Source: Boswellia sacra
Taxonomy: Eukaryota > Streptophyta > Magnoliopsida > Sapindales > Burseraceae
NCBI GenBank assembly: GCA_013180625.2
Contig: SNVD02006192.1
Coordinates: 179,341 to 243,340 of the forward strand
Direction: 5' to 3'
Length of the DNA: 64,000 bases
Of this stretch, positions 18,601-41,000 are shown piece by piece. A model generated the notes under the pieces. It was not told the origin of the DNA, searched no databases, and was given only the letters and a program-made list of their open reading frames with translations. Position numbers and translations under genes: made by a program. The stretch's first letter is position 1. The number at the start of each line of letters is the position of its first letter.

Positions 18601-18689
18601 CGGCTTGACGTAAGGAGAGTTTGCGGGAAACAAAAAAATTTCCCAAATTATTAGGGGGAAATCCCTAGAGCCAAAAACAACCCATCACT

Positions 18690-18940
18690 AGGTCCCTTTC
18701 CTCACCACCACCGTTTTCTCCTCCATCTGTTTAAAGTTGTAGTACTACTATCGCCTCCTCCATCTTTTAAAGGCAACACCACCATCATCTCCTCCATCTA
18801 TTGAAGGCAACACCATCGTCATCTCATCCATGTATTTGGAGCACCACCACTGCCATCTCCTCCATCTATCAAAAGCACCATCACCGCTGTCTCTTCCATC
18901 TGTTTAAAGCAACGCCAATTGCATCTCCTCCATCTATGCT
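18690..18940 (+). repeat. Minisatellite of about 36 bp, copy A
   Basis: Some six or seven degenerate units built around CACCACCATC-TCTCCTCCATCT followed by ATT/TTTAAAGGCAA. A matching array occurs in copy B at about 38050-38300. It lies in the leader region upstream of the transposase genes. Confidence 0.7.
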
Positions 18941-18999
18941 AGTAATATGGGTTTCTCCTCTGGTTCATTATCAGTCTTTGTTTGATTTTTTTTTAGTAT

Positions 19000-21852
19000 A
19001 ATTTATATAGCCCAATGATGGACAATTTTGGAGTATGTTGGCCTAGATCTTCATTGTAATTCTTTGTTTGATAATTTTTTTCATGATTCTTATACATATT
19101 TTTATAAGTGAATCGAACCTAGTAGGTTTCATGACCACAAATAAGTGACATTATTTATTATAATAGCTGATAATAATATTCGTTGTAATTCGGAAGAGTA
19201 TTATTTTATTGATTTAATAAATATTATTAAACCAATTGAACCTTTTAATTCATACATTGATATGATGAATGTTATCAAGCTTACCAAAGTCTTGATTTTA
19301 CGTCTAAAGGCTTCCTTTAAAAAAAAAGTTCTGTTAAGATTTTGTTGTTGGGCAGCTACTCCACAAAAAAAAAATGTATGTATTATTAGAGTTAAAACTC
19401 ACTAATCAAATATATTCTACTACATGCTTGGATATTTGAAAGTTGATCTTTTCCTCTAATGAATCTATCAATTTCATATACTTAGGTGTAAATTCTTGAG
19501 CATTGTTGTCAAATAAGACCTTCCACCCTCCCATGACAATTATAGGAAACAATGATACATCTTCGCTTGTGATTCATATATAAACTTTAAAAATTAATAT
19601 ACAATTGGATACTTTGAATGCATGTAGGAAGCAAGTATGGTTAGTTCTTTCTACCGCACATGTTTGGTCACTTGAAGAACCATTTTATTGGATTTCAACA
19701 TATTTGATTTGCTAATGGGATGATACTAACTTCCCACGGTGTGTACAAGCTCCTAATGATGTTGTTCTTATGACTTTTGTTGTTCTACATTTTGTTTTGT
19801 GTGTGCAATAATCTGCATGGTCTTGTACACAGGGATATATGCTTTTCTGGGTAGTTAGTTATTCATTCTACCAATGGGTTACCTGGTTGCCACCTCTGTT
19901 ATTTGCATTGAAGCCTACAGCTAGAATACTTGTGTATTGTTCTTTTTATTTGACTAATTTTACTTTTTTGTGGATACGAACTAAAAAAGAAATAAAAATG
20001 TAGTAACTAAGGATGTATAAAGCAATGATGACATTTTTTAAAGTAAGTTTAAACATGTATTTGTCAAGACAACTAAAGGTAATCAAATAGTCAAAATATA
20101 GTGCACATGGCATTGCAAAAAAGCCCTGAAATTGGCAAAAGCAACTAAATTAACATTTTGATCTTTAGAACTTCAAAATGAGTTATTCTTTTCTCATCTT
20201 ATAGGCTAGTTTACAGCTATATATCCTGGTAAATAGAAAAAATCATTTAAGATGGCAGTGCTTATTATTATTCTGGACTATAATCATATTAAGGGTGTGT
20301 TTATAGCAAATTGATTTGGAAAGAGGTAGAAGCATGTATTTCAAAAGTTTCATTGTAACCTTTGATTCTATTTAGATGAATCTATCCATGTATTTTTCAA
20401 AGAGTTGTTGTATTTTTATTTTTTGCTAAGCTTAGAGCTGCTGCATTAGTTATGAGGTCACTTCCATAAGTATTGGTAAGAACTAGGTTGCTTTAAGACT
20501 TTTATTAAGTATCTATTGTCTTGCTTGGAAACATCATGAAATGTGACATTTTCAATGTAATTTTTAAGCTTTTATTTGCTTGATTTTATAATGCAATCCT
20601 GATGTTATATTTGACCGATAGTGATTTCATATTAGATGTTGAAAGAAGTTCTTGTTATAATGATTTAACATGATGTTTTTCAGCTATCGTAGATCTTATT
20701 TCATAGCTTACGAAATTCCTCTTTGCCAAGGCATATATTTTGCGGATAACCATTCACAATTTGAAAAAAAAAAAAAAAGGTCGTACGGTCAACATTTATT
20801 TGGTTAAACCATTTGTTTTGAGTCATCAACATTAAAAGTAGTTGTTAATCAATCAAGCTCTCTGACTCCCTCTTGCCTTGCCAAGGATTTCAATTTATGA
20901 GCTAAAGATGGCAAATGGGCCCTCCAATTAAGCTTAGCTGCCTTTGCTGTGGGGCATAGAAGTAAACTCCACAAAGTAATGTCTCAAATCTTGAAGTGAT
21001 TGTCTTCATATCTTTTCACTATTAATGAATCTATTTGTGACTGTAAAAAAAAAAAATTAATATTTTGCTATTTTAAATTTTGTAAATTTATGTTTAGAAT
21101 TGGCTAAATTTAATTTTTATGATAGCAATCAAAGTTATTAAAATTAGCATCTGATCTATCATTATCCCGCAGGTGAAGAACTGGTTGGATTATACTTTCA
21201 GCATGATTTGTCCCATCTTCCTATAGAATCAGAGCTCTTCCTAACCTATACTAGGTTAGCACCGAATAAAGAAAAAATGATAAGTTTACTAGGATAGAAT
21301 GCCCTGTTATTTGATGAATTAATCGCCAATGAAATAAGTTCCAAATAATGTATTAGATCATACACCCCTTAAAATCAGCATATGACATAACAATTCATCA
21401 AGTTTGGTAATCCTATTGGAATAAGTAGAAGACCTTGATGTTTGTTTGAAATGCAAGTAGCACCTTTGATTGGAAGATTTGATTCCTATAGTAAGCAATC
21501 AAAGGCGGACTTCAAACAAATAAGAAGCTTTAGCTATTTTGATTTAGTTTAGTTATTGTAAATTAAAACTAACATATGGCAGCTTTTACATCACTATCTT
21601 AATTTATTTATTTTATTTTTTTATATGTTGAATACCATAATATGGAAATCAATTGTTGGATTTAGTTTTCTTTTTTGGTTGATATTGATACTAATGTGGG
21701 ATTAGATTAATGGTAATTTTTACATGCGTATTTGTGTTTAAATGATATATGATCATGTTATTAATTATGTTTTTCTTGAACTATGCTTTAAGGTAATCTT
21801 ATTGCTAAAAAATGTAGTTATGTAATTAATGCATATTTATTTTGTGTTTCAG
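19000..21852. other. Copy A: region upstream of the Transposase_24 gene, no gene recognised
   Basis: Aligns piecewise with copy B (about 38300-49450) outside B's private insertions. At about 21683 the sequence passes from GGTTGAT to ATTGATACTAATG. In B these two words lie at about 49452 and 53638, on either side of the tnp2 gene, so A has lost about 4.2 kb here with only a few bases of junction homology. Position 20003-20010 (AACTAAGG) is the unoccupied target site of the Pack-CACTA found in B at 40936. Confidence 0.7.
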
Positions 21853-23788: not shown

Positions 23789-24176
23789 CTTTGGGTTCTA
23801 CTTATGGCACTTATTATCAGTCTTTTGTTAGTATATACCTTTGCTAACCTTGTTGGATCATCATCTTACTGTCAACTTTATCTTACTTTGTAGTCTACAT
23901 GTAGTAGTTAATATTAGTTTCTTTTGGTTTGTTTATGTTTTTCCTAACTCTGCTATTATGCTTACCACCATCATCATTTGTAGCCTACATGTAACAACTA
24001 ATATCATTTTCCTTTTGTTTGTATATAATTTTTCTAACTTTGATGGCCTAAGGTCATGCTTACACCACTTTTACCTTAACTTATGGTTTACTTGTAGCCC
24101 TTTTATATAGTTATTGTCGTACTTATGAAATGTTAAATTTCCTTGTAAAAATTTTATATAATATTGTATAATGAAG

Positions 24177-25588
24177 TGATGAACACTTAAATATGTATGC
24201 TTAATAAAAGCTTAATTCATCATATTGCATTAATAGTGTCATTAAATTCCTCAATTTAAGTATATTTGTAATCTTTGCATCTTTTGAATTAACTCTCTCT
24301 TAATTTTGGTTTTGTTGTAGGTTTAGTAAAATGGGCATAACTTTCTATTCATAGATCAGAATGGTGCAAATCTTGATGTTTTAGAAAGCTGATTCAATTA
24401 TCTACAAGATTATATTTCACAAGCATCATCAAATTCGGGCTCTTATTAGATCAAAAATGGACTTGAAGTGAACCCATCTGTAGTTTCAGCCCAGCCTGAC
24501 CATGCCTCAATATTTTGATCATATCTCTTGATCTACGTATCCAAATGGTATAAATCAAGATGTTCTAAAAAGCTGAGAGAAATATCTACAACTTTCATGA
24601 AGACATGTGATCAAAATTCTCAATAATTCAGTGCCGAAATCAGTGGTTAAAGTTGGTTCACCTAATTACCCCAATTGTCAACAAAATATTTGACAAATGT
24701 TCCTTTGTAATTTGACAAGTTTGCCCCTGAATGTATCTATAAATAAAGGTGCATTGTGACCCATTAGGGCATCTTGGCCTTGGCTAGGATCTTTTGTTAT
24801 TGTGTTTTTCTCTCTTGTATTTTAATGTTATTAATGAATTTCCTTTTTCTTGCAATTTGTTTTCTTTCTTTTATAATATCTTGCTAAATTATCTCTTGCT
24901 AAGGTGAAAGGGTGAGACCCTTGATATGAAAATACGGATTTTCTAACCCTTTGATATGTGCTTAATAATCATAATCTTGTGTTGTTTAATTTATATGATT
25001 TATATTTATTTACTTAATCAATCTTGACACCACTCGTAAAGTGGAGGTCTTGATCCATTATCGACAATCCTTGACACGTCAAATACTTGGATCCTTTTTA
25101 GATGTCGTATGGTTCTTCCTTACCAACACAAATCTAGTTAGGAACCTTGATTTGTTGTAGACATATGGTGATTGGCACATTGGATACTTGAACCCATTTA
25201 CAAGAAGTGGTATAAATATTGGTAACGAACAAATATAATTCATATAGCTAAAATGAGCTACTTATCCTTATTTGATATATCAAGGGTGGATCCCTGAACC
25301 TTAGCTTTCATTATTATTGTGTTAATTCCTCTTACTTTTATACTTTAATTATTCTTATATATTGCTTATGAAATTGGTTTTTCATTTGCTATGGTAGGTT
25401 TTACCTCTTATTCTCATGGATGGTTTTACCACCTTTTATTAACATCATCTTAATTATTTATATCATATTTGCTTACCTTTTAATTTGTAGCGCTAAAATC
25501 TCCTTCCTCGTGGATCAACCTTGGTCTCATCGGGTTTATTACTTCGACACTCCTATACTTGGGAGATAATCCTTTTTTGGATGTGTCA
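24177..25588 (+). repeat. 5' LTR of the Athila-like element
   Basis: 1412 bp. Contains a TATAAATAAAGG promoter-like box at about 24738 within a roughly 70-bp segment missing from the 3' LTR. Confidence 0.93.
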
Positions 25589-25594
25589 AGTTTT

Positions 25595-25612
25595 TGGCAC
25601 CGTTGCCAGGGA
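25595..25612 (+). other. Primer-binding site of the Athila-like element
   Basis: TGGCACCGTTGCCAGGGA begins 6 bases after the LTR and resembles the TGGCGCCGTTGCCGGGGA type used by Athila-like elements (usually assigned to tRNA-Asp), with G-to-A changes. Confidence 0.75.
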
Positions 25613-25689
25613 AGGTCAAAATTGGCATGCAAAATTGTAAGTATTCTCTTTTCTCATTTTAGATCTTTTTTTTTTTTTTACTTTGTCGT

Positions 25690-27340
25690 GTGTTCATCTT
25701 TTCTTTTCTTTTCTTTTCCCTTTCTTGCATGAAAATTTGGTCACGAACATCTAGTGGTAGACTTGTTAGAAAAACATCATCTTCCTTGGAAAACATGACC
25801 GAAAATCAAGTGGAAAGGTTCACAGATGAAGGGGACAACCATTCCCAACAAAATGATCAAAACCAACCAAGAACCCTAAGAGATTACATGAATCCGGTAA
25901 GGACCAATGCATCATCTTGTATTATTTCTCCTCCCGATTCAATCCATTTCAATTTCAAACCAAGTTTTGTTCGACTTCTACCCACCTTTCATGGCCTTGA
26001 TATAGAGAACCCATATTCGCACTTAAAAATCTTTGAAGAGGTGTGTAACTCCTACAGTGACCCAAATTATAGCATAAACACCATTAGATTAAATCTTTTT
26101 CCTTTTTCTTTAAAAGATAAAGCTAGAACATGGCTACAAAATTTGAGGTCAAATTCCATCAGTTCATGGGATGAGATGAAACAACAATTTTTGAAAAAGT
26201 TTTTTCCTACCCATAGAACAAATTCTCTTAAAAGATAAATTTCCAATTTCACTCAAAAATAAGGGGAAATCCTTTACCAATGTTGGGATAGGTATAAGTA
26301 ACACCTCAAGATAGGCAACTAGTAGAGTTAATGTGTAATGGAGAATTCGGAGATAAAGATCCTGAGGAGGCAATTGACTACCTAGATTCCTTGGCAGACA
26401 AGGAACAAAATTGGGACACTGCTGGTACCTATGAGGTACCAAGCAAGGCCCCAACCTTGACATCCAATAGAGGCATTCACAACCTTAGGGAAGACCATGA
26501 CCTTCAAGCCAAATATGCATCCCTAGCTAGAAAAGTCGAGGCTTTAGAAATTAAAAAGAGTGGTCAATTGAATTCTATTCAAGAAATTGTTTGTCACATT
26601 TGTATAATGACCATTCTACTGATGATTGCCCAACTTTGCCTGCCTTTAGGGAATGTCTCCATGGAGAAGCCAATGCCTTGAACACTTTCAAAAGGCCAAA
26701 TCACAATCCATACTCACACACTTACAATGTCGGTTGGAGAAATCATCCATATTTTAGTTGGAAAAATGACAATCATGCACAATCTTTACAAGTCCCTTTT
26801 CAAACACGACAAAATTTTTAAAATTCTCATGATCATGCATATGCTCTTCCTCCTAGGAATGACCTTGAAGAGACATTGCATTCATTCATTACAAAGCAAG
26901 AGACTTTCAATAGTCAAACTGCTCAAACATTAGCAAATTTGTCAAACACTCTTGCGAAATTTGAATATACATTTAGCAGCCAAGAAAAAGGAAAATTTCC
27001 TTCTCAAGCATTGCAAAACCCTAAAGATTAATCTAACTCAAATGCAGGGAGTTCAAGTAACCATTATTTTGACCAAGCCAAATCAGTCATGACCCTTCGC
27101 AATGGTAAGGTTGTTGAAAAACACATTCCTAACCCTTATGAAAAAGAAGAAGAATCGATCTCTAAAGAGCAGGAAGAGGTTGCCAAACCAACACCTAGCG
27201 AAGAAGAAACCAAATCTTCATCTGTGCCTCCATTTCCTCAAGCATTAGCTACATAAAAAAAGCCAACTCACAATTCTGAAATCTTTGAAATTTTCAAACA
27301 TGTAAAGGTCAACATTCCCTTGCTAGATGTGATCAAATAG
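25690..27340 (+). pseudogene. Athila-like gag (broken)
   Basis: The capsid core is seen at about 25950-26240: FKPSFVRLLPTFHGLDIENP, then HLKIFEEVC, FPFSLKDKARTWLQNL, SWDEMKQQFLKKFFP. A stop at 26236-26238 follows. About 30 residues are missing before VTPQDRQLVELMCNGEFG in another frame (26300-26350), then SRKVEAL-like coiled coil and a partial zinc knuckle (CHIC or CHLYNDHSTDDCP, about 26590-26630) split by a frameshift. A Glu/Lys/Ser-rich linker (about 27110-27240) leads to protease, with further stops at about 26820, 27029, 27256 and 27339. Confidence 0.88.
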
Positions 27341-28831
27341 GTACCTTCTTATGCAAAATTTTTGAAAGAATTGTGCATTGTGAAAAGGAAATTGAATGTG
27401 AAAAAGAAGGCCTTTCTCGCCGAGCAAGCAAGTGCTATTCTTCAAAACAATAATACAGTGAAATATAAGGATCCAGGTTGTCCTACAATTTCATGTGTTA
27501 TTGGAGACCATAAAATTGAACAAGCTTTACTTGATCTTGGTGCTAGTGTGAATTTGCATCCATACTCGGTTTTTCAAAAACTCAATCTAGGTGAGTTAAA
27601 ACCGACTTTTGTGACTCTTTTGCTTGCTGATAGATTAATTAAAGTACCAAAAGGAGTAGTAGAAGATGTGTTAGTTCAAGTTGATAAATTCATTTATCCA
27701 GTGTATTTTATCGTCTTGGACACACAACCAGTGGAAGTATACAATTCAATTCCTGTTATTTTAGGGCGTCCATTTCTAGCTACCTCTAATGCTTTGATTA
27801 ATTGCAGGAATGGAGTCATGAAGCTATCATTTGGGAGCATGACATTGGAACTTAATATTTTTAATATGTACAAACAACCACATGAAGAAGATGATGAAAC
27901 TGAGGAGGCTAATATGATTGAAACTATTGTGGAAGACCACATTCAAAAAGGGAGTTCTTCTGACCCTTTGAAAACTTGTTTAGTAAATTCATTAGAATCA
28001 AGTATGGAAATAAAGCCTGATCTTTCTGATATATGTTCTTTACTGGATTATGCACAGGTGATGGAAAAAGGCTCAAAACCAAGATTCGAAGAATTAGGGC
28101 AAATGAATGAAAGTAAGGAAGAGGAAGCTCCAATGTTAAAACTGAAGCCCTTACCTGAAGAACTGAAATACGCATATCTTGGGGAGAATCAGACATATCC
28201 GGTGGTAATTTCTTCATCCCTCACAAGCGAGCAACAAGGTAAGTTGATACACGTACTTAAAAGGCATAAAAATGCAATCGGATGGACTTTAAAAGACATA
28301 AAAGGCATTAACCCTTTGATTTGTACACATAGAATACATTTAGAAGAAAATGCCAAAACATCCCAACAACCTCAAAGGAGATTAAATCCCCACATGAAAG
28401 AGGTCATTAGGGCTGAAGTTCTCAAACTACTTGATGTAGGAATTATCTACCCTATTTCTGATAGTAAGTGGATAAGCCCTACACAAGTAGTACCTAAGAA
28501 ATCTGGCATTACAGTAGTCAAAAATGAAAAAGGTGAATCATTGCCAACTCTAGTCTCATCTAGTTGGAGGATGTGCATTGATTATAGAAAATTAAATGCT
28601 GTTACCAGAAAAGACCATTTTCCCTTACCATTCCTTCACCAAATTCTAGAAAGAGTAGCAGGGCACCCTTACTACTGCTTTCTCAATGGATACTCAAGCT
28701 ATTATCAAATTTCCATTGCACTTGAAGACCAAGAAAAGACCACATTCACGTGCCCCTTCAATGCTTTTGCATTTAGGAGAAAGCCTTTTGGACTTGTAAT
28801 GCTCCAGCTACTTTTCAAAGATGCATGTTAA
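27341..28831 (+). pseudogene. Athila-like pol: protease and first half of reverse transcriptase
   Basis: An open stretch of 489 codons from 27362. The aspartic-protease active site ALLDLGASVNLHPYSVF is at about 27523-27573, followed by VTLLLADRLIKVPKGVVEDV and ILGRPFLAT at about 27752. RT starts near 28180 with EELKYAYLG, then HRIHLEE, WRMCIDYRKLN at about 28566, and FLNGYSSYYQISIA. A 1-base deletion at about 28796, inside the conserved PFGL-NAP block, throws the frame off. The protease processes the polyprotein; the RT copies element RNA into DNA. Confidence 0.92.
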
Positions 28832-29661
28832 GCATTTTTAGTGACATAGTTGAGCATTGTTTAGAAGTTTTTATGGATGATTTAACTATCTTTGGAAACT
28901 CTTTTGATAATTGTCTTGAAAACTTAGAAAAAGTCCTAAAAAGATGTGAAGAAAAATGTCTTATTTTGAATTGGGAAACATGTCATTATATAGTCACTTC
29001 AAGAATTGTCTTAGGTCATGTGGTGTCTTCTAAGGGAATTGAAGTGGACAAAGCAAAAGTGGAATTAATTTCCCATTTGCCTCCACCAAAAATAGTCAAA
29101 GAAATCCATTCATTCTTAGGGCATGCTGGATTTTATAGGAAGTTCATAAGAAATTTCAGTGCCATATCTAAACCTCTTTGTAACCTTTTAATAAAATACA
29201 CTTCTTTTGAATGGACTCAAGAATGTCAAATTGCCTTTGATAAGTTAATTGGACTTTTAACAACTGCTCCAATTATGCAATCTCCCATTTGGTCATTGCC
29301 TTTCGAATTGATGTGTGATGCAAGTGATTATGCCGTTGGTGTTGTCTTAGGACAAAGAAAAGAAGGTAAGCCTTATGTGATATACTATGCAAGTAGGACT
29401 TTAAATGATGTACAAATGAATTACACAACAACTGAAAAAGAACTACTTGTAGTAGTATTTGCATTAGACAAATTTTTATCTTATTTAATTGGTTCTCCAA
29501 TGATTGTTTACACTGATCATGCAGCTATGAGATATTTAATGTCTAAACAGGATGTAAAACCTAGATTGATACGGTGGATATTGTTGCTCCAAGAATTCAA
29601 CATCATAATAAAGGATAAGAAGGGAGCCAAAAATGTCGTTACAGATCATCTTTCAAGATGA
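28825..29661 (+). pseudogene. Athila-like pol: reverse transcriptase (rest) and RNase H
   Basis: Continues in a new frame after the deletion near 28796. The RT catalytic box is [10 protein letters not shown] (about 28867-28896), then [17 protein letters not shown] and [17 protein letters not shown]. RNase H runs from about 29300: [48 protein letters not shown], and VTDHLSR, so the four acidic catalytic residues are present. It ends at a TGA at 29659-29661; the frame continues into the integrase linker behind this stop. Confidence 0.92.
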
Positions 29662-30917
29662 ACGACAGAGATATTAATTGAAACTTCACCTATCAATATC
29701 TCTTTTCCTGATGAATTTTTATTCTTCGTTGCTGCAGTACCTTGGTTTGCTAACATTGTAAATTTTCTTGCAACAGGAGAAATGCAACCTCATTGGAATG
29801 CTCAAGACAAAAGGAAGTTTTTGACTGAGGTGAAAAATTTTTATTGGGATGAACCATATCTGTTCAAATATTATCCGGACCAAATAATTAAAAGATGCAT
29901 ACCTGACAATGAGGTAAGTAGTGTCATTAACTTTTGTCATTCCGAAGCATGTGGAGGACATTTTTCATCTAAAAAAACAGCTGCTAAAATCTTGCAATGT
30001 GGATTTTATTAGCCCATCTTATTTAAAGATGTACATGCATTTTGTAAAACTTGTGAAAATTGTCAAAAATTGGGATCCATTTCAAAACGAAACATGATGC
30101 CTTTGATTCCCATTCTTGTTGTTGAAATCTGTGATTGTTGGGGTATTGATTTTATGAGACCTTTTCCACCTTCATTTGGTTTTGTGTGCATTCTTGTTAC
30201 AGTAGACTATGTTTCAAAATGGGTTGAGGCAATTCCATGTTGAGACAATGATCACAAAACAGTTATCAAATTCTTGAAAGAGAATATCTTGTGTAGATTT
30301 GGAATTCCTCAAGCCATTATTAGTGATGGGGTGCACATTTTTGTAACAAACCATTTGAAACTCTAATGAAGAAATATGGAATAACCCATAAAGTTTTTAA
30401 ACCTTATCACTCGCAAACAAATGGACAAGTTGAATTGGCTAATGGGGAGATAAAACCGATCTTAGAAAAAATGGTTAACCTAAACCATAAAGATTGGTCT
30501 TTAAGACTTAATGATGCACTTTGGGCTTACCGAACTGCCTTCAAAACATCATTGGGAATGTCTCCTTATAGATTAGTTTATGGAAAACCTTGTCACTTGT
30601 CTGTAGAAATTGAGCATAAAGCTTATTGGGCCATTAAAACATTTAACACAAATTTGGATGTTGCTTGCAATTTACGTAAACTCCAACTGAGTGAACTTGA
30701 AGAAATAAGGAATGAGGCTTATGAAAATTCTAAAATCTACAAAGAAAAAATGAAGGTTTTTCATGACAAATTCATTGTTAAAAAATCTTTTGAACCTTCA
30801 CAAAAAGTTCTTTTGTATGATTCAAGATTGCACTTGTTTCCTGGTAAACTTCGGTCTCGTTTGACTAGGCCTTTCATTGTTAAAAATGTTTTTCCACATG
30901 GAGTAGTTGAAATTTGA
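29662..30917 (+). pseudogene. Athila-like integrase (broken)
   Basis: N-terminal zinc finger: CHSEACGGHFSSKKTAAKIL with CKTCENCQK (HHCC type), interrupted by a TAG at about 30010. Core: CWGIDFMRPFP (first Asp, about 30138), a TGA at about 30241, IISDG (second Asp, about 30322) followed by a frameshift, then [12 protein letters not shown] (catalytic Glu, about 30420-30455). The C-terminal part includes [14 protein letters not shown] and [20 protein letters not shown], normal for Athila/Tat integrases, with no chromodomain. Confidence 0.9.
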
Positions 30918-31153
30918 GAACCTAAAGAATGATAATGTGTTTAAAGTTAACGGACAACGGTTAAAACATTCTTGAAAAATTTTGACCAAAATGAAGAGTC
31001 CATTGCTTTAATCGATCCTTTTTAAGGATTGATTTTTCCCGGTTAAGTAGCGGATACAGTACTCTGTGGCTTTTAAAGTCGGTTTTTCAGTTCCTTAAAA
31101 ATTGTTGCTCACTTTGCATTCATTTTCTTTTCTTCTCTCTCATTTTTTTTCAC

Positions 31154-31603
31154 ATGGATACCATTCTCTCAAATCTGCACAAACATTTTCCCTCTCTTCC
31201 TCAAAATGATTTGCTTAAAATTTACAAAGCTCGCACAGAAAGACTAAGGATGTTGATGCATAAGGGTATTCCTGTTGATTTAAGATGGTTAATTGAAGCC
31301 AAGGTTCGATTTTCTTGTGAGTTTTTAGATAATCTTGTTTCCCACATGCCAGGTTTGGGAAAAAGCTCTTACGCTAAAAAGCGAAGAGCGAAAATGTTAC
31401 AAGTTTGTCACAGATGTGCAAGATGGACTTGTAACCCGCGTTGCCGCTTCTTGGGATATTTGTCTAATAATCGAGAGGATAAACTACAGTTCATCAAGAA
31501 TGGACTGAGTAGGGATTCTTTAGATAATATCCGAGTGACTATCAAGACGCATTCTTGTGGACTTGTGCAGCATGAAATTTTTAAATTGTGGACACAATTC
31601 TGA
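31154..31603 (+). CDS. Small basic Cys-rich protein ORF carried by the Athila-like element
   Basis: 149 codons, uninterrupted, ATG at 31154 just after a pyrimidine-rich leader. It lies about 240 bp after the integrase remnant and outside it. It has a helical N-terminus (LSNLHKHFPSL), a conserved-looking WLIEAKVRFSCEFL, a basic run KKRRAK at about residues 74-79, and directly after it CHRCARWTCNPRC, four Cys in 13 residues (C-x2-C-x4-C-x3-C), a likely zinc-binding, nucleic-acid-binding module. No Cys before about residue 54. The layout (SYAKKRRA then CHRC) is reminiscent of the small Cys-rich nucleic-acid-binding proteins of some flexuous plant RNA viruses, but the Cys spacing differs, so this is only a hint. 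It is not a usual Athila env-like ORF, as no membrane segment is seen. Confidence 0.55.
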   Translation: MDTILSNLHKHFPSLPQNDLLKIYKARTERLRMLMHKGIPVDLRWLIEAKVRFSCEFLDNLVSHMPGLGKSSYAKKRRAKMLQVCHRCARWTCNPRCRFLGYLSNNREDKLQFIKNGLSRDSLDNIRVTIKTHSCGLVQHEIFKLWTQF

Positions 31604-32026
31604 GATGAGCAGGAATGTTATAGTCTTGGGAATCTGACTCAAAATGATCCTGTTTGCCAGTTTATAAGAAAACTATATGGGAAACATATCCCTAACTCAT
31701 AAAAGGTGTTTAAGCTGTTTCTGGACGTAAAATCAGAGGAAGATGTAAGCCACAATCACAACTACCTGTACATATGCATGTGTGCTATCATTTTTGAATT
31801 TTAATACATTACAACTGGCATTTTTGAATCTGTATCTTTTGTTTGACTTATGCATTTATGGTGTTTTTTTCATTATCTTTTTTTGAATTTCTATGCATTA
31901 TTGTCAAACTTTTTCAACAAACAACCGAGCTACCTATTTAGATGTCATCATTAGAATACCTTTTTGCACTCCATAAATATGACATCTCTTGTTCTTCTCT
32001 TCACATAGTTAGAGAGTTGCATAGAC

Positions 32027-32449
32027 ATGGAGGGAACTTCAAAACGTCGAATCCAAAGGATATGTGTATTCTGTAGATCTCAACCTGGAAAAAGTGAAGA
32101 GTTTGTAGCACTAGAAAATTATTTTGGTAGGCTATTAGCTAAAAGAAAGATTCATGTTGTTTATGGGGGAGGTAGCCTTGGGTTAATGGGTTGTGTGTCA
32201 ATAGCTACACTCATAGGAGGCATTCAAGTTTTAGGTATTATTCTTAAAGCTTTGGCTGTAGAAAGCATCGTTGGAAAAACAGTTAGGAAGGAGTTACAGG
32301 TCTCCTCTATGCATAAACGCATGGCATTTATGCTTATCAATTTGGATGCCTTTATTACTTTACTAGGTGGCTTTGGTACTCTCGAAGGAATTTTTCAAAT
32401 TACCTCTTGGGCCCAACTAAATCTCCATAAAAAACCCATAGGTTTGTAA
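32027..32449 (+). pseudogene. LOG: LOG-like cytokinin riboside 5'-monophosphate phosphoribohydrolase, intronless and truncated, carried by the Athila-like element
   Basis: A 140-codon open frame clearly of the LOG family: KRRIQRICVFCRSQPGK (normally CGS), HVVYGGGSLGLMG nucleotide-binding loop (about residues 44-56), MHKRMAFM, LGGFGTLEGIF and ITSWAQLNLHKKPIGL. LOG enzymes release active cytokinin bases from their nucleotides and are about 200-220 residues; this ORF stops right after KPIGL, lacking about 70 C-terminal residues. The hallmark PGGxGTxxE reads LGGFGTLEG, losing the first Pro and the catalytic Glu, and CGS has become CRS. So it is unlikely to be active. Plant LOG genes have several introns in this segment; none here, which implies capture through mRNA. 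Confidence 0.85.
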
Positions 32450-32917
32450 GGAGTTCAATTCCTCTTGAGACGCATTCTGGGTCAGGAATAACAAAGTAAA
32501 GAGGGTCAGTTTGAACTCTTGAAACATACTCTAACCAATTTGTCATTTTGTTTTTGCATTTTTGAAGACTTATTTTAACTAACTTGATATTATTTAGTTT
32601 TGATTTTTGAATTTTATAACAAGGAGGTCTTATTCACTTCACTTTGAATTATTCAAATCTATGAACTCTCACAACCTTATCATTTAATAAACCGTGTGCT
32701 CATGTGCTCATTAAGCAAGTATTCATGAATCTTTCTTCACACACACACATACTTTGATGCATGATTGTGGGTTGCAAAATGAAATATTATAATATTTGAG
32801 TTCTTTTATTTTGTTTAGGATAACAACAAAAGGAAGGGGAAAGTTCAAAAATAAAAAAGAAAAAAAAAAGAGCGATTGTGGATAAGTTTGGTCTTGTAGC
32901 CTCCTTAATTCAAGCAA

Positions 32918-33170
32918 TTAAGCCCGAGGGGTGCCTTAACACCTAATACCCTAAGACCAACTGGTTTGGGAGCTATTGGCTCAAAGCTCGTTACATGGAT
33001 TAAGGAGAAAGCTTAATGGGATTGAAAATTGCACTATCAACAAGTTTTTAAGCAAAAATAAAGCATCGGCAACTCGAGTCGTTAAGCTCGTAGGGGTGTC
33101 TTAACACTTAATGCCCTAAGGCCAACTGGTATGGGAGTCATTGCCTAAGGCTCGCTACATGGGTTAAAGA
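32918..33170 (+). repeat. Pair of direct repeats before the polypurine tract (Athila-like element)
   Basis: Two copies of about 88 bp (about 32918-33005 and 33082-33170) share CGAGGGGTGCCTTAACACC, ACCAACTGG and GGCTCGCTACATGG-type words. Such repeats ahead of the tract are common in Athila/Tat elements. Confidence 0.75.
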
Positions 33171-33492
33171 TGCATTATTTCAAAAAAAAAAGAAGAAAAA
33201 ATATATAAATAATGATGAATGAATGCCCCCTACTTAAGATTGTTAGCTTTAACAAATATTAGAACCGATATGGCTTCTTTCTAATAAGCCCCATGTGTCA
33301 ACTGAGCACAAAAAGAAGGTTTGTTAATATCTTGACTGAAGGATACATGAGTCATTTAAAAAAAAGAGAAAAATAAATCGATTGAGAGTTTGTTTATTTG
33401 GATAAAATCAAAGAAAGTATAATAATGACTACCTTGGATGTAAAATTCTATAAATCACTTTTAAATAATAATGCTTTAATTGCTAGGGACTA

Positions 33493-33514
33493 GGAATAAG
33501 CTGGTTGGGGGGTG
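33493..33514 (+). other. Polypurine tract of the Athila-like element
   Basis: GGTTGGGGGGTG directly abuts the 3' LTR start at 33515, the primer site for plus-strand DNA synthesis. Confidence 0.8.
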
Positions 33515-34854
33515 TGATGAACACTTAAATATGTATGCTTAATAAGAGCTTAATTCATCATATTATATTAATAGTGTCATTAAATTCTTCAACTTAAGTA
33601 TATTTGTAGTCTTTGTATCTTTTGAATAAACTCTCTTTTAATTTTGGTTTTGTTGTAGGTTCAGTAAAATGGGCATAGCTTTCTAATTATAGATCAGAAT
33701 TGTGCAAATCTTGATATTTTGGAAAGATGATTAAATTATCTACAAGATTGTATTTCACAAGCATCATCAAATTTGGGCTCTTAGTAGACCAAAAATGGGC
33801 TTGAAGTGAACCCATCTGCAGTTTCGACCCAGCCTGATCATGCCTCAATATTTTGATCATATCTCTTGATATATGTATCCAAATGATATAAATCAAGATG
33901 TTCTAGAAAGTTGAGAGAAATATCTACAACTTTCATGAAGATATGTGATCAAAATTCTCAATAATTTAATGCCGAAATCAGTGGTTAAATTTGGTTCACC
34001 TAATTACCCCAATTGTCAACAAAATATTTGACAAATGTGCCTTGTGACCTGCTGGGATCTCTTGTTATTGTGTTTTTCTCTCTTGTGTTTTAATGTTATT
34101 AATGAATTTCCTTTTTCTTGCAATTTATTTTCTTTATTTTATAATGTCTTACTAAATTATCTCTTGCCAAGTTTAAAGGGTGAGACCCTTGATATGAGAA
34201 TAAGGATTTTTAACCCTTTGATATGTGCTTAATAATCATAATCTTGTGTTATTTAATTTATATGATTTATATTTATTTACTTAATCAATCTTGACACCAC
34301 TCGTAAAGTGGAGGTCTTGATCCATTGTCGACAATCCTTGGCACATCAAATACTTGGATCCTTTCTAGATGTCGTATGGTTCTTCCTTACCGACACGAAT
34401 CTAGTTAAGAACCTTGATTTGTTGTAGACATATGGTGATTGGCACATTGGATACTTGAACCCATTTACAAGAAGTGCTATAGATATTAGTAACGAATAAA
34501 TATAATTCATATAACTAAAATGGGCTACTTATCCTTATTTGATATATAAAGGGTGGATCCCCTAACCTTAGCTTTCATTATTATTATGTTAATTCCTCTT
34601 ACTTTTGTACTTTAATTATTCTTATTTATTGCTTATGAAATTGTTCTTTCATTTGCTATGGTAGGTTATACCTCTTATTCTCATGGATGGTTTTACCACC
34701 TTTGTTAACATCATCTTGATTATTCATATCATATTTGCTTACCTTTTAATTTGTAGCGCTAAAATCCCATTCCTCGTGGATTGGCCTCGGTCTCATCGGG
34801 TTTATTACTTCGACACTCCTATACTTGGGTAATAATCTTTTTTCGGTTGTGTCA
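33515..34854 (+). repeat. 3' LTR of the Athila-like element
   Basis: 1340 bp, 72 bp shorter than the 5' LTR. Most of the difference is one deletion near 34043 that removes the TATAAATAAAGG box. Confidence 0.93.
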
Positions 34855-34859
34855 TGAAG

Positions 34860-35232
34860 CATATATATGATGTTAGAATTTAGATTTTACTGTTTTGTTA
34901 ATTTTTATGATTTCACTTAATATTTTAATTTTTATAATTTGTATAACTTTTGGGCACAATATAGAAGAATTGGATTCAATAAGCCTATTAATTGCCTATT
35001 AATGATGAAAATGAAATAAACACAACAAAAAAAATTCAAAAATTCAGAACCATGTGATGAAAAATGGTTGACAAAAAACTCTATTTCGCGACAAAACCGT
35101 TGTCAACTCGTTTACCCAATTATGTTGCCAACATTGTTTCTCACAATAAATATGTTTTGCGATGAAAATTTAGTCACAACAGGTAATTTATAATGTCTCA
35201 ACTGTTTTGTAATAAATGTTTCCTCCTAACAT
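34860..35232. repeat. Fusion junction between CACTA copies A and B
   Basis: 34860-35230 aligns with 54005-54376, the 3' subterminal region (shared start CATATATATGATGTTA, then GCATAACTTTTG-like and TTTTGCGAYGAAAATTT words). At TTTCCTCCTA|ACATTAAATT (about 35231) the similarity to the 3' end stops and similarity to 16012 onward (the 5' internal region) begins. The last about 800 bp of A and the first about 1.3 kb of B are therefore missing at the join. Confidence 0.85.
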
Positions 35233-36157
35233 TAAATTAATTAATCCCTGTGTTTTTAATAATTAGCCAACATTTGAATATTAAGTAAAATAAATATTTT
35301 ATGTTTTTCGAATTAAATAATTTATCATATTTACTAAATATTCTTCACCTCTATTTTTTAATAGTTTACAAAAATTTGAATATAAGCAAGTTAAAATATA
35401 TATATATTTATTAATAGAATTTTTTAATAACTATATAATAAATATTGAATAATTAATATTAATTACATTATTGTAAAAAATTTTATTCATTACAACGTAG
35501 TCTTATATTATATTTTTTAACCCCGGATTATGGTTTGGGATTGAAACTCTAATGCACCAATTGGTTTATCATTTGTATTTTATTACTTTATCTTTATTAT
35601 TATTAATATTATTTATTGAACGCGACTTCATTCAGTGCTTATGGTCTTGTGGTTGTGTGCTAATTGACAAATACACGAGACTTGGGCTTGAGGCATCTCT
35701 ATGTTTAGGTTGGTATTGTTTTCCCAGGATGCATAGATTTAAAATATATTTAAATATTGCGTGTAAAATTAATCAAATTCAAAATTAAGTATAAACCAAT
35801 TTCTTCTAATCTAAATTCATATTTTATATTAACTTGGTTTTTATAGAAGTTTTATAATTTGGTTCCTAACCAATCAATGTCTATGTGTTATTGTAAATTT
35901 ATAGTTATGATTCGCAATCAAGTAAACTCAGATAAAAAAATTTAATTTAAAAATGAATTACTAATAAATCAACCCAATACGTTTATCAGTTTAATTTAGG
36001 ATTAGATTGACTGAATAGATCAAGATAACCACATACATTTATTATAAATAATCAAACTACATATATAACTTTTACAATTTAATACGTAATCGATTGAACT
36101 ACATAAAGAAGTTCTGTTACATTTAAATTACTTATCAATTAAATTTAGACATAGAAG

Positions 36158-37122
36158 TAGGGGTAGGCAATATTTTGGGTCGGGGCGGGTTTGGCGATAA
36201 CCGATCATACCCGAATATTCATCAGGTTTGATAAATTAGAACCGATTTCAGATATTTTTTTTGTACTACCTGAAGGGTATCTATAGGGTCGGGTCGGGTC
36301 GGGTGTATTGGGTATATCTGGTTGGGCTGGGCTTTTATTTTGATGCTATTTTGGGCTCGGCTTTCACAATCGACACTCGATATTAGTCCATTTTGAAAGA
36401 CATCGAGTGTCGGATGCATCGACACTTTCTCAATATGTCGAGTCTTGTCGGATTCACAACCGACACTCAATATCAGTTTATTTTCGAAGACATCGAGTGT
36501 CGGATGCATCATCTGACACTCGACACTTAAATGTCGAGTCGTGTCGGATTTACAACCGACACTCGATATCAGTCTGTTTTTGAAGACATTGCTCGACACT
36601 TACTCGACACTTACATGTTGAGTCGTGTCGGATTCACAACCGACACTCGATATCAGTCTATTTTAGACGACATCGAGTGTCGGACGTGTCGGATTCACAA
36701 TCGACACTCGATATCAGTCTATTTTCGAAGACATCAAGTGCCGTATGCATCATCCGGCACTTGACACTTACATGTCGAGTGGTGTCAGATTCATAACCGA
36801 CACTCGATAAGAGTCTATTTTCGAAGATATCGAGTATCCGACACTCGACACTTACATGTCGAGTCATATCGCGCTTTGTCGAGCGCGTTGAGTTTTGTCC
36901 AATTAACTTATGCCACGTGAAAAATTAAATTGTTTTTAATAAAAAATATTCGGGTTGGGTATCAATCGGGTTTATATAATTTTACCTGATTTTGGGTCGG
37001 GTAATATCGGGTACTCCAATTTTATAACCGATTTCGATTATTTTTTCTCTCTTACCCAATCACACCCGATTCGGGTCAGATAAACCCGATCGGGTCGGGT
37101 CGGGGAATTATGCCCATCTCTA
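36158..37122. mobile_element. Non-autonomous hAT-like element with an internal palindromic repeat array
   Basis: Ends TAGGGGTAGGCAATATT and (reverse-complemented) TAGAGATGGGCATAATT are imperfect inverted repeats of hAT type. The 8-bp duplication CATAGAAG is perfect on both sides (36150-36157, 37123-37130), and copy A holds the empty site at 16967-16974. Subterminal zones are rich in GGGTC. The middle (36360-36880) holds about six copies of a CGACACTCGATATCAGTC - ATCGAGTGTCGG hairpin-like unit. No transposase; long ORFs on both strands here are repeat artefacts. Confidence 0.88.
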
Positions 37123-38049
37123 CATAGAAGTATCTTATTTGTCGATGATCAAATCACTAATCGATCAAGCAAATTCAATTATAAATTTGATTGAGGATTA
37201 GTGGATTACGTTGACTCAAACAATAAGGTAAATATATAAAAATATCGTAATTAATCAACCTACATTAACAATTTTTTTTTTGAATTTGATTCATAATCAA
37301 TTAAACTGTATGTAAAATTTTTTATAAATAAATTACTAATAATTTAAACTTATTTATAGACATAATATTTTATTAGACAAAACTGTTGAGATATTATGAG
37401 CATTACTCGTAATCAATTAAGTGATTATAACAAATACCTATAGTGATAGTGAATTGTTGAGATACTATGATTAATATTTAGTCTTTGTGAATAATATAAA
37501 TAATTAAAATTAAACTCTATAATTAATATCATGTACATCATATAAATAATCAATCATTTCTCAATTCAAGCAAAAAAACTAAGATTTAAATTTCAATACT
37601 TCTATAAAATTTGCAAAAATATAGGATATAGAACTATTTATATTTTTTATGTTTTTGTTTTACAACATAAAGAAGTATCTTTGTGTAATGGAGATATATC
37701 AAGTAATTGAAGACTTCATTAACGAAAATAATTAAGTATAATTTTATTCATAATATTAAAATATTATTTGTATTTGTAATCAATGTAGTTATTAAAAAAA
37801 AAGAACATTAATTACAATAATTTGAAGTAGTTTTAAATAAAATTTAAAGATTACGTGTGATTACATAATCAAACAATTAAGATTAACATTAATATAATAA
37901 AATAATATATTAAACAAGTTGATTATGTTATTGTTTACTAAAAGAGTAAGTAGACATTTGGCTTGAAGCAGTGACAGTAGCGGGAAACCAAAAAAATTCC
38001 CAAATTGATAGAGGGAAATCCTGAGAACCAAAAACAAATCAATCGCAGT

Positions 38050-38300
38050 TCCCTTTCCTCACCACCTGATCCATCTTCTCCTCCATCTGTTTAAAGCCCC
38101 ACTATCATCGTCTCCTCTATCTGTTCATGGCAACACCAACGTCATCACCTCCATCTATTCAAGGCAACAATACCACCGTCTCCTCCCTCCCTTTCAAGCA
38201 CCAACATCGTTGTCTCCTCCATCTGCATAAAGCATCGCCACCATCATCTCTTCCATCTATTTGAAGTGCCGCCACCACCGTCTCCTTCATCTGTGTTGGT
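38050..38300 (+). repeat. Minisatellite of about 36 bp, copy B
   Basis: Partner of 18690-18940 with CTCCTCCATCTG and ACCACCGTCTCC words repeated about six times. Confidence 0.65.
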
Positions 38301-38760
38301 GATGTGGGTTTCCAATTTGGTTCTACATTTTTTTTCCTGGTAAAATTGTATACAACCTGATGGTGGACAATTTTGGAGTATTCATTATCAATGTTTGTTT
38401 GATAATTTTTCTGTTCTGTTTATGTGGATTTTGTTGACCCAGGTATGGCAACCCAAGAGGGGGGGTGAATTGGGTTTTTATTTTATCAAAACGGATTTAG
38501 AAAACTTTTCTTTAAAGATCAAAATTAGTTTACTCTTCCTTTGAGAATAGAGGTGAAGAAGATGAAAATAGAAGTTGTCTAAGATGCAATCAAGAGAATA
38601 GCAATAATGAACAATCACAAGTGCAAGTAAATGTAAAGAGGATAGGGATAGAGAGAGTGCAAACTCAATTTACGTGGTTCGGCAAACCTTGCCTACGTCC
38701 ACGGGCTCCTAGCTCCACAAGCTAGACTTTCTACTAAGTTGTAGAATTCTTTACAACTTG

Positions 38761-39017
38761 CTTGATGAACGACCTCACCAAGACTTTTTCCTTCAACCCT
38801 TGATAACACCACACCAAGAGTTCTTCTTGATGAACAACCTCACCAAGGCAACTTCCTTCAACCCTTGATAACACCACACCAAGAGTTCTTCTTGATGAAC
38901 AACCTCACCAAGGCAACTTCCTTCAACTCTTGATAACACCACACCAAGAGTTCTTCTTGATAAAACCTCACCAAGGCAACTTCTTTTAACTCTTGATAAC
39001 ACTACACCAAGAGTTCT
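38761..39017. repeat. 65-bp tandem repeat, four units
   Basis: Units start at 38761, 38826, 38891 and 38956 with CTTGATGAAC and end AAGAGTTCTT; the last is degenerate and 62 bp. Confidence 0.92.
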
Positions 39018-39329
39018 CTCAAGGATAACTTTTATCCTTTACAAGAAGATCTCACTCTCACCACAATACAAGAACAAAGAAAATTTTTATAACAAAAGTA
39101 CAACTCTCTTCAAAGAGTAGATAAAGAATATAAGAGCTCTCTAAACTTGATATTTCTCTTGTTTTTTGCTTGATAGATGCTTCTCTTGCTCTTGCTGAAT
39201 GCATGGGAGAAGGGCTCCTTTTATAGGCAAATATGATGGACTTAATCAAGTGAAGACACCAACTCCAAATTTTCTACCCACCATAAAAACCGAAATCTTG
39301 TCTGCCGTTTTTATCAATGTTCTGCTTGA

Positions 39330-39985
39330 AATTTGAAAATCTATAAAACATAAAAGATCTGCAAAATTGAATGAGCTTTCCAACTCATCAAGAACCAAGT
39401 CATTTGATATCTGTAGCTCAAGATATGGCCAAAACACCATTCGGTGCTCATGTGACTTGATTTTTCTTCCTTGTGCCGATCCACCGACTTTCATGTGTAT
39501 TATGTCAGCCTTCCATTTGAAATTTGAATTTCTTCAAACAATATGAAATGTGCTCCATTGAATCATCTTTCCAATGTCATAATAATCAAGTCATTTGGAT
39601 ATCTCTAGCTCACGATATGGACAAAATATCATTCAGTGCTCATATGAGTTGATTTTTCTTCTCTGTGTCAGTCCACCGAATTGCATGTCAATTATGTCGG
39701 CCTTCCATTTGAAATTTGAATTTCTTCAAAACATATGAAATATGCCTCATTAAGTCCTCTTTCCAATGCCATAAGAATCAAGTCATTTTGATATTTCTAG
39801 CTCAAGATATGTCCAAAAGAGTATTTAGTGCTCATGTCAGCTGCTTCGCTTTATCTTTCAACTTGCATGATGATTTGGACAACCTTGCACTTGAAATTTG
39901 AATTTCTTTAAAACATATGAAATGTTATAAATTGAGTAAGCTTTCCAAAGGCTTAAGAATCATGTCATTTGGACATCTATAGAGA
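39330..39985. repeat. Degenerate tandem repeat of about 180-200 bp, three to four units
   Basis: The phrase CAAGTCATTTGGATATCT followed by AGCTCAAGATATGG recurs at about 39396, 39597, 39779 and (as CATGTCATTTGG) 39962; between them CATTTGAAATTTGAATTTCT also repeats. Confidence 0.8.
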
Positions 39986-41000
39986 TATATATGACCAATT
40001 TGATTGAATATTATTTAAGTGTCACATTCCTTGAGTCAAACCTTGTTCTTAAACTTTGGTGCCTTTAACATGTAGTCTTCTCCTTAGCTTCAACACTTCA
40101 TTTTAATAAGCCTCTTCTTGATTTTACAATTATTTCAATAATCTTATTCTTGCACATAAATAAACATATTAGTAAATCTCAATGAATCAATGTGTATTGT
40201 TATCATCAAAATTATTATGTAGCCTTAGGGCTAACAGGTTTCTCCAAATCAATCGGAGTATTCATTATTCTATTGCGATTTTGTAGTTGGCCAGGTACTC
40301 CAAGAAAAGAAATACATGTCCCATAAGAGTAAAAACATATTTATCAAATATCTGCAGCGTATGATTGGATATTTTGTAAGTTTTTGTTGTCCTCTAATTG
40401 CTTTCTCAATTTGTTTAACTTACGTGTACATTTTGAGCTTTATTGTCAAATAAGAGCTTCCAGCTTCCCGCTACAATTATAGGAAACAATGATACATCTT
40501 CACTTGTGATTCAAATATAAACTTTAAAAATTAATATACAATTGGATCCTTTGAATGAATGCAAGCAGCAAGTGTGATCAGTTCTTTCTACTGCACTAGA
40601 AGAACCATTTTATTAGATTTCTACAATAGGAATTGCTAATAAGCTGATACTCTCTCTTCATGATATGTAAATACTCCTAATGATATTATTCTCATGACTT
40701 TTGTTCTGCATATTGTTTTGTGTGTGTAATAATCTAAATGGTACTTGTAGACAGGGATATATACTTTACTAGGTAGGCATTCATTCATTCTGCAAGGACA
40801 TTTTCTAGGTTTCCTGGTTGCCATCTCTCTTATTGGCATTGAAGCCTACAATTATATAATTGTGTAATTTTTTATTTGACTGAATTTACCTTTTTATGGA
40901 TAAAAATTGAAAAACAAATAAAAATGTTGTAACTACACTACAAGAAAGTAAGCTATATACTGTAGCATTATACGGCGGTTTTTAGAGAACGCCTTAAATA

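What the first reader, a model, noticed from the sequence alone, without database searches (positions are those of the whole stretch)
32027..32449. A retrotransposon carrying an intronless LOG (cytokinin-activating enzyme) ORF
Between integrase and polypurine tract of an Athila-like element lies an open, intron-free frame with the LOG signature loops (GGGSLGLMG, GGFGTLE). Host LOG genes are interrupted by introns in this region, so it was probably captured from mRNA during reverse transcription. A hormone-activating gene as retrotransposon cargo is striking. This copy lacks the catalytic Glu and the C-terminus, but less decayed family members might encode a working enzyme.
Basis: partly seen in the sequence, partly recalled or inferred. 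Interest (0 to 1): 0.85.

Follow-up and report, generated by a model that had tools for sequence, protein, structure and literature searches.

The report
Retrotransposon LOG gene with repressor-binding tail
An old family of plant jumping genes carries its own remodelled version of a cytokinin-activating enzyme, with an added tail that looks made to grip the host's gene-repression machinery; the copy in this window is a broken one.

Summary
The LOG ORF is real (PF03641, E 1.6e-18) and sits in an LTR retrotransposon at 24177-34854 with TSD TGAAG. It is no one-off: 39 further scored copies at 91-93%, and 150 of 150 scored matches to a LOG piece lack stops. A host LOG gene has introns at three places where the element's ORF runs through, so mRNA capture is supported. 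Between three lineages LOG dN/dS is 0.13-0.53. Two features were missed. Retro-LOGs end in an LxLxL (EAR-like) tail: 89 of 120 hits against 0 of 120 host LOGs. Upstream lies a conserved ORF matching viral nucleic-acid-binding proteins. Five of 16 copies lack pol but keep both ORFs. This copy's missing C-terminus is a ~460-bp deletion; its Glu-to-Gly change is shared by 24 of 29 aligned rows. LOG domains in Citrus and Populus Gypsy elements are already in print (PMC9289625); tail and partner were not found in my searches. Function is inferred, not shown.

The parts
24172..24176 (.). 5-bp target-site duplication TGAAG, left copy (right copy 34855-34859)
   Evidence: flanks printed
24177..25588 (+). 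5' LTR
   Evidence: K80 0.069 to the 3' LTR, 1340 sites compared; BLAST
25589..25615 (+). primer-binding-site-like stretch directly after the 5' LTR (Athila type by recall)
   Evidence: sequence printed; type recalled, not tested
25663..26238 (+). gag fragment
   Evidence: PF03732 E 1.9e-11
27341..30917 (+). broken pol: protease-like, reverse transcriptase, RNase H and integrase pieces in several frames
   Evidence: RT and RNase H matches E 1.5e-9 to 6.2e-34 and a weak Integrase_H2C2; RVT_1 below cut-off, weak protease and rve; no Pfam hit for 30327-30914
31154..31702 (+). NABP-like ORF, 182 codons, in-frame TGA at 31601-31603 in this copy
   Evidence: Carla_C4 E 3.4e-7 and Viral_NABP E 1.2e-6, both above cut-off; tblastn with P0121 over 1-182 at 70%
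32027..32449 (+). LOG ORF, truncated (about 140 of about 217 codons)
   Evidence: PF03641 E 1.6e-18; PDB 2a33 and 1ydh
32445..32447 (.). junction of a 455-466-bp deletion relative to other copies
33515..34854 (+). 3' LTR

Best explanation
The window holds a decayed member of an Athila-like LTR retrotransposon group that took a LOG coding sequence from a spliced host mRNA long ago and kept it as an accessory gene after pol, beside a viral-NABP-like gene (shown: presence, continuity across host intron sites, spread, past purifying selection). The product was remodelled: LOG fold and PGGxGTxEE motif are kept in most homologues, the Lys after the conserved Arg is usually replaced by Ile, Met or Leu, and a disordered tail with basic residues and an LxLxL motif was added (shown by sequence and model). 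Most likely mechanism (inferred): the protein enters the nucleus and docks by its tail onto TOPLESS-type corepressors, weakening or redirecting repression that bears on the element or on growth genes, while the LOG core releases active cytokinin and so favours dividing cells in which new insertions are inherited. The NABP-like partner would bind element RNA or blunt silencing, as viral relatives do.
For: Copies and TSDs. Host introns. Between-lineage dN/dS LOG 0.13-0.18 (B-C), 0.23-0.29 (A-B), 0.37-0.53 (A-C); NABP 0.08-0.27. Tail in 89 of 120 retro hits against 0 of 120 host LOGs. EE kept in 108 of 120 of either set. Disordered tail on a confident LOG core. NABP beside LOG in 27 of 28 lineage-A loci. 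Pol-less copies keep both ORFs, 5 of 16.
Against: No expression, binding or enzyme data. Short LxLxL motifs arise by chance: 2145 of 20800 shuffles of these tails contain one. In lineage A the Glu is lost in most rows, and LOG there is close to neutral (0.725 pooled, 1.12 in the closest quartile). Lys after the Arg, kept in 117 of 120 host LOGs, is replaced in most retro-LOGs, so enzyme activity may be lowered. A TATA- or acceptor-like signal before LOG was not consistent between lineages.
Confidence: 0.5

Rival explanations
1. Enzyme only: the element's LOG activates cytokinin locally, stimulates cell division and so raises germline transmission; the tail is a minor localisation or stability signal without corepressor binding.
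For: Core motif EE kept in 108 of 120 hits; R98, G115, G117, T118, E120 and E121 invariant in the 41 homologues aligned; LOG fold.
Against: Tail conserved in sequence and place; Lys after the Arg replaced in 105 of 120; the window's subfamily spread without the Glu.
Confidence: 0.25
2. Scaffold only: the LOG fold is a dead platform for the tail; what is kept is corepressor binding.
For: Gly at the catalytic position in 24 of 29 lineage-A rows while the tail is recognisable in 26 of 29.
Against: EE kept in lineages B and C and in 108 of 120 hits; lineage A is decaying and its rows were picked by likeness to the window.
Confidence: 0.15
3. Passenger: a captured gene that hitchhikes without use.
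For: Near-neutral change among lineage-A copies.
Against: dN/dS 0.13-0.18 between lineages B and C; homologues of conserved length in several families; kept in pol-less copies.
Confidence: 0.06
4. One-off processed LOG pseudogene inserted into this copy.
For: Only its intron-free state.
Against: The same ORF sits at the same place in 28 of 28 lineage-A loci read, with different TSDs.
Confidence: 0.01

Closest known systems
YgdH (LOG) domain in Ty3/Gypsy consensus elements of Citrus sinensis, C. clementina and Populus trichocarpa (PMC9289625; it cites Steinbauerova et al. 2011, not held)
   Same: LOG-type domain as an extra ORF of plant Gypsy elements; probably the same group (Populus hits).
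   Different: In the passages and section read, that paper names only the domain. Tail, NABP-like partner, selection, host introns and pol-less copies are not mentioned there.
Plant LOG phosphoribohydrolases (AtLOG3 2a33, AtLOG8 1ydh)
   Same: Fold (TM-score by target 0.95-0.97) and PGGxGTxEE motif.
   Different: Tail absent in 0 of 120 host LOGs having it; Lys after Arg replaced; 44-45% identity for the window copy or a retro-LOG to host LOG and about 50% in the fold alignment.
Athila and other OTA elements with extra ORFs after pol (PMC7264820, PMC6317226; passages seen)
   Same: Place and sense of the extra ORFs, order of parts.
   Different: Extra ORFs are a captured enzyme and a viral-like NABP. 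Clade not tested by a tree.
Carlavirus/betaflexivirus nucleic-acid-binding proteins (PF01623, PF05515)
   Same: Basic stretch plus Cys cluster; scores above Pfam cut-offs for the window ORF and P0121; P0130 only for PF05515.
   Different: 182 aa with a conserved C-terminal half outside the matched stretch; poor model (pLDDT 60.8). Direction of transfer unknown.
AlkB-type demethylase ORF in orchid Gypsy elements (PMC9289625)
   Same: A host-type enzyme captured by a Gypsy lineage and kept.
   Different: Different enzyme, element type and host; theirs was tested in vitro, this one not.

Membership tests
LOG phosphoribohydrolase family | Fold and profile match | tested here: met
   PF03641; 2a33 TM-score 0.97 by target for homologue P0005
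LOG phosphoribohydrolase family | Conserved Arg and PGGxGTxxE with catalytic Glu | tested here: inconclusive
   Met in 41 of 41 aligned homologues and EE in 108 of 120; Glu lost in the window copy and 24 of 29 rows
LOG phosphoribohydrolase family | Release of free cytokinin from its nucleotide | not testable with these tools
   needs an enzyme assay
Athila clade of Ty3/Gypsy | RT/integrase placed in Athila by a tree | not tested
   no reference set on hand; name rests on order of parts, primer site and recall; no PF03078 hit among the ORFs scanned
Athila clade of Ty3/Gypsy | LTRs, 5-bp TSD, gag-pol, extra ORF after integrase | tested here: met
EAR-motif (TOPLESS-recruiting) proteins | LxLxL motif in an accessible place | tested here: met
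   89 of 120 hits; tail disordered in the model; absent from the truncated window copy
EAR-motif (TOPLESS-recruiting) proteins | Binding to TPL/TPR | not testable with these tools
   needs a binding assay
Viral_NABP / Carla_C4 | Profile match above curated cut-off | tested here: met
   30.6 and 29.1 bits against 20.9 and 23
Viral_NABP / Carla_C4 | Nucleic-acid binding or silencing suppression | not testable with these tools
   needs bench assays

The most novel reading that the evidence does not exclude
A eudicot-wide retrotransposon lineage carries a two-gene host-manipulation module: a captured LOG enzyme rebuilt into a nuclear, TOPLESS-docking effector, and a viral-type nucleic-acid-binding protein. 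The module is useful enough that gag-NABP-LOG elements without pol persist and spread with borrowed polymerase. A transposon would thus use cytokinin and corepressor signalling to make its own cell state and chromatin, as plant pathogen effectors do.
Probability: 0.3. Interest if true: 0.92.

Novelty: new variant of a known kind. Interest (0 to 1): 0.72.

Why it matters
If the tail works as it looks, a transposon targets the same corepressor hub as pathogen effectors and couples it to a hormone enzyme: a concrete, testable way in which a retrotransposon shapes host cell state. It also warns annotators that many proteins named LOG or LOGL10 in plant genomes may be retrotransposon ORFs. And the carlavirus-type partner raises the question whether such viral genes came from, or went into, retrotransposons.

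Tried and rejected
One-off insertion: rejected. Neutral passenger: disfavoured. My idea that the ORF ends at a retained host intron (GTAAG after PIGL): rejected, the end is a deletion junction. Splice acceptor or TATA-like box before LOG: looked at, not consistent between lineages, left open. N-terminal host exons: the search did not complete, so only part of one host gene was read (L065). Species of the genome: not identified (one search does not discriminate). Donor clade of the retro-LOG: not resolved; only AtLOG3, AtLOG8 and one long-branched bacterial LOG stood for the outside, and the 120 host LOGs are the nearest relatives of AtLOG3 only. NABP fold: model too poor to search with. Steinbauerova 2011 not held.

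Left out before counting: LTR pairs L010/L036 and L019/L044 (nested, not clearly one element) and automatic pairs inside L019, L023, L026 and L027 (K80 0.098, 0.110, 0.029, 0.153, 0.129, 0.132). In one search pairs with under 40 synonymous sites and codons with gaps or stops were skipped. One search used 4 of 29 lineage-A LOG rows, 3 of 8 B copies and 2 of 3 C copies.

Full report
What is in the window. The frame 32009-32449 is open and matches the LOG family (PF03641, E 1.6e-18; Arabidopsis 2a33, E 6.9e-34). It lies in an LTR retrotransposon: LTRs 24177-25588 and 33515-34854, a 5-bp duplication TGAAG, a gag fragment, broken protease, RT, RNase H and integrase frames, and two ORFs between integrase and the 3' LTR. 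The name Athila rests on the order of parts, the primer-site type and my recall of Athila pol, not on a tree.

Family, not accident. The window's genome G000 has 638.6 Mb in 7431 contigs. The 423-bp ORF has 40 scored matches, one being itself and 39 at 91-93% identity, out of 2863 candidates. A 58-aa piece of AtLOG3 gave 150 scored matches at 60-64%, all 150 without stops, out of 8312 candidates. Candidates are raw and are not copy counts. I read 12 of the 150. Eight belong to a lineage B (L049-L056), three to a lineage C (L057, L058, L060) and one to the window's lineage A (L059). Seven of the 12 have an unbroken frame of at least 200 codons to the tail, and four of these (L054, L055, L056, L060) start at the Met.

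TSDs and age. Both flanks could be read in eight lineage-A copies. Seven have perfect and different 5-bp duplications: TGAAG (window), GCCTA, ACGAT, CAATA, GTAGA, TTGAA, CCTAG; L017 does not (read by eye). Ten LTR pairs assigned to one element differ by K80 0.061-0.102. At a recalled rate of 1.3e-8 per site per year this is roughly 2-4 million years, older in a slow host.

How this copy is broken. L007, L016 and L018 have 455-466 more bases at 32445-32447, with 2-3 bp of overlap at the join, and 16 of 16 copies have extra sequence there; this explains the missing C-terminus. The second Glu of GTLEE is Gly (GGA) in 24 of 29 aligned rows, Glu in 3 and a stop in 2, so the change preceded the spread of a subfamily, with the caveat that rows were chosen by likeness to the window. 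A gap-free open LOG frame remains in 1 of 29 rows and a gap-free open NABP frame in 3 of 29.

Capture from mRNA. The four best places of a C-terminal AtLOG3 piece are host exons at 85-86% identity, and five of the six best stop at residue 41 or 42 of the query. One host gene was read in part (L065). It has splice junctions inside the GG of PGGYGT, between P and V of KPVG, and after KLE. The element's ORF runs through all three. Capture of a spliced transcript is the simplest origin; donor clade and date are open.

Selection. Comparisons of individual copies (NG86) give LOG dN/dS of 0.13-0.18 between B and C, 0.23-0.29 between A and B, 0.37-0.53 between A and C, 0.22-0.33 within B and 0.45 for the one pair within C (dS 0.04). 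Synonymous values near or above 1 are rough. NABP gives 0.08-0.20 (A-B), 0.19-0.27 (A-C) and 0.08-0.14 (B-C). Within lineage A, LOG is 0.725 pooled and 1.12 in the closest quartile of pairs; NABP 0.519 and 0.62. Both ORFs were constrained while the lineages diverged; lineage-A LOG copies have since drifted. Drift after insertion makes the between-lineage values too high rather than too low.

Spread. A search with a lineage-A LOG found 7883 proteins, of which the best 120 were seen; named ones come from Xanthoceras, Reevesia, Diplodiscus, Pterospermum, Populus, Parasponia, Paulownia and Melia, with more than 20 Reevesia rows and a Pterospermum cluster of 327 members. That these are retrotransposon ORFs and not host genes is inferred from their number, tail and tree place. 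A search with a NABP ORF found 263, 120 seen, with names from Xanthoceras, Populus, Rhamnella, Acer and Orobanche. P0002 (LOG) and P0122 (NABP) both name a longest contig of 8723 bases, P0026 and P0163 one of 2128, which suggests shared contigs without proving it. In a tree of 49 rows the 46 retro-LOGs form one group (99/92) apart from AtLOG3 and AtLOG8.

Remodelled protein. In 41 homologues that I aligned (of 120) R98, G115, G117, T118, L119, E120 and E121 are invariant. Compared with the 120 best relatives of AtLOG3 (a few have aberrant predicted ends), two things differ. The residue after the conserved Arg is Lys in 117 of 120 host LOGs but Ile, Met or Leu in 105 of 120 retro hits. And LxLxL stands in the last nine residues of 89 of 120 retro hits against 0 of 120 host LOGs. 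Of 104 retro hits of at least 205 aa, 89 have it; of the other 15 several are near misses (LDLTFSL, LNLTISL) or end early. Shuffled tails contain LxLxL in 2145 of 20800 cases, so the motif alone is weak; its fixed place and spread carry the weight. Four retro hits keep Lys; P0105 and P0001 (Xanthoceras) branch first, and P0105 ends just before the motif, so they may show an older state or be host genes. The model of P0005 has a confident LOG core and a disordered tail and matches 2a33 best. LxLxL motifs recruiting TOPLESS are established knowledge (listing of PMC12566939 and PMC10744876 seen, not read). Basic residues before the motif could serve as a nuclear signal (inference).

Partner ORF and pol-less copies. 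The ORF at 31154-31702 matches Carla_C4 and Viral_NABP above their cut-offs. A NABP stretch is present in 27 of 28 lineage-A loci (not L005) and in 4 of 4 stretches read upstream of B and C LOGs, one of them disrupted (L064). A mandarivirus cysteine-rich protein was reported to suppress silencing (PMC12172455, abstract seen); that it is a relative is my inference. Of 16 lineage-A copies compared along their length, five (L013, L015, L020, L021, L026) share one structure: a gag region at 69-84% identity, nothing like window 27245-31034 (protease to integrase), then NABP and LOG. A sixth, L014, has no match upstream of 30853 either, for reasons not followed up. Gag-like frames remain in the two copies that I read. 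Four of the five have different duplications. The simplest reading is a non-autonomous derivative that moved with borrowed polymerase and kept both accessory genes; chance shared descent without need for the genes is the alternative.

Mechanism and novelty. Shown: a captured, once selected, remodelled LOG ORF with a viral-like partner in an old retrotransposon group. Inferred: corepressor docking, nuclear action, cytokinin release, silencing suppression. A LOG (YgdH) domain in Citrus and Populus Gypsy consensus sequences is in print (PMC9289625: passages, section 12), so this is a new variant of a known kind. Tail, partner and pol-less form were not found in searches of the held library, which lacks most subscription papers, Steinbauerova 2011 among them.

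Noticed in passing
window 31154-31702: ORF related to carlavirus nucleic-acid-binding proteins, conserved across the family, in-frame stop in this copy.
   Followed up: yes
L013, L015, L020, L021, L026: Pol-less derivatives that keep gag-like sequence, NABP and LOG; at least four different TSDs.
   Followed up: partly
window 3269-5419 and 55960-58049; 16011-20009 and 35227-40935; 20009-21456 and 47459-48847: Long direct repeats at 77-86% suggest older nested elements; the LOG-bearing element may sit inside one.
   Followed up: no
window 39403-39998: About three copies of a 180-192-bp tandem repeat.
   Followed up: no
P0105, P0117, P0001, P0025: LOG hits that keep the host-type Lys after the Arg; P0105 and P0001 branch first: possible intermediates between host and element LOG.
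   Followed up: partly
window 31965-32026; L060; L061: TATAAATA-like box and a CATAG acceptor-like site before the LOG ATG in lineages A and C, not in B.
   Followed up: partly
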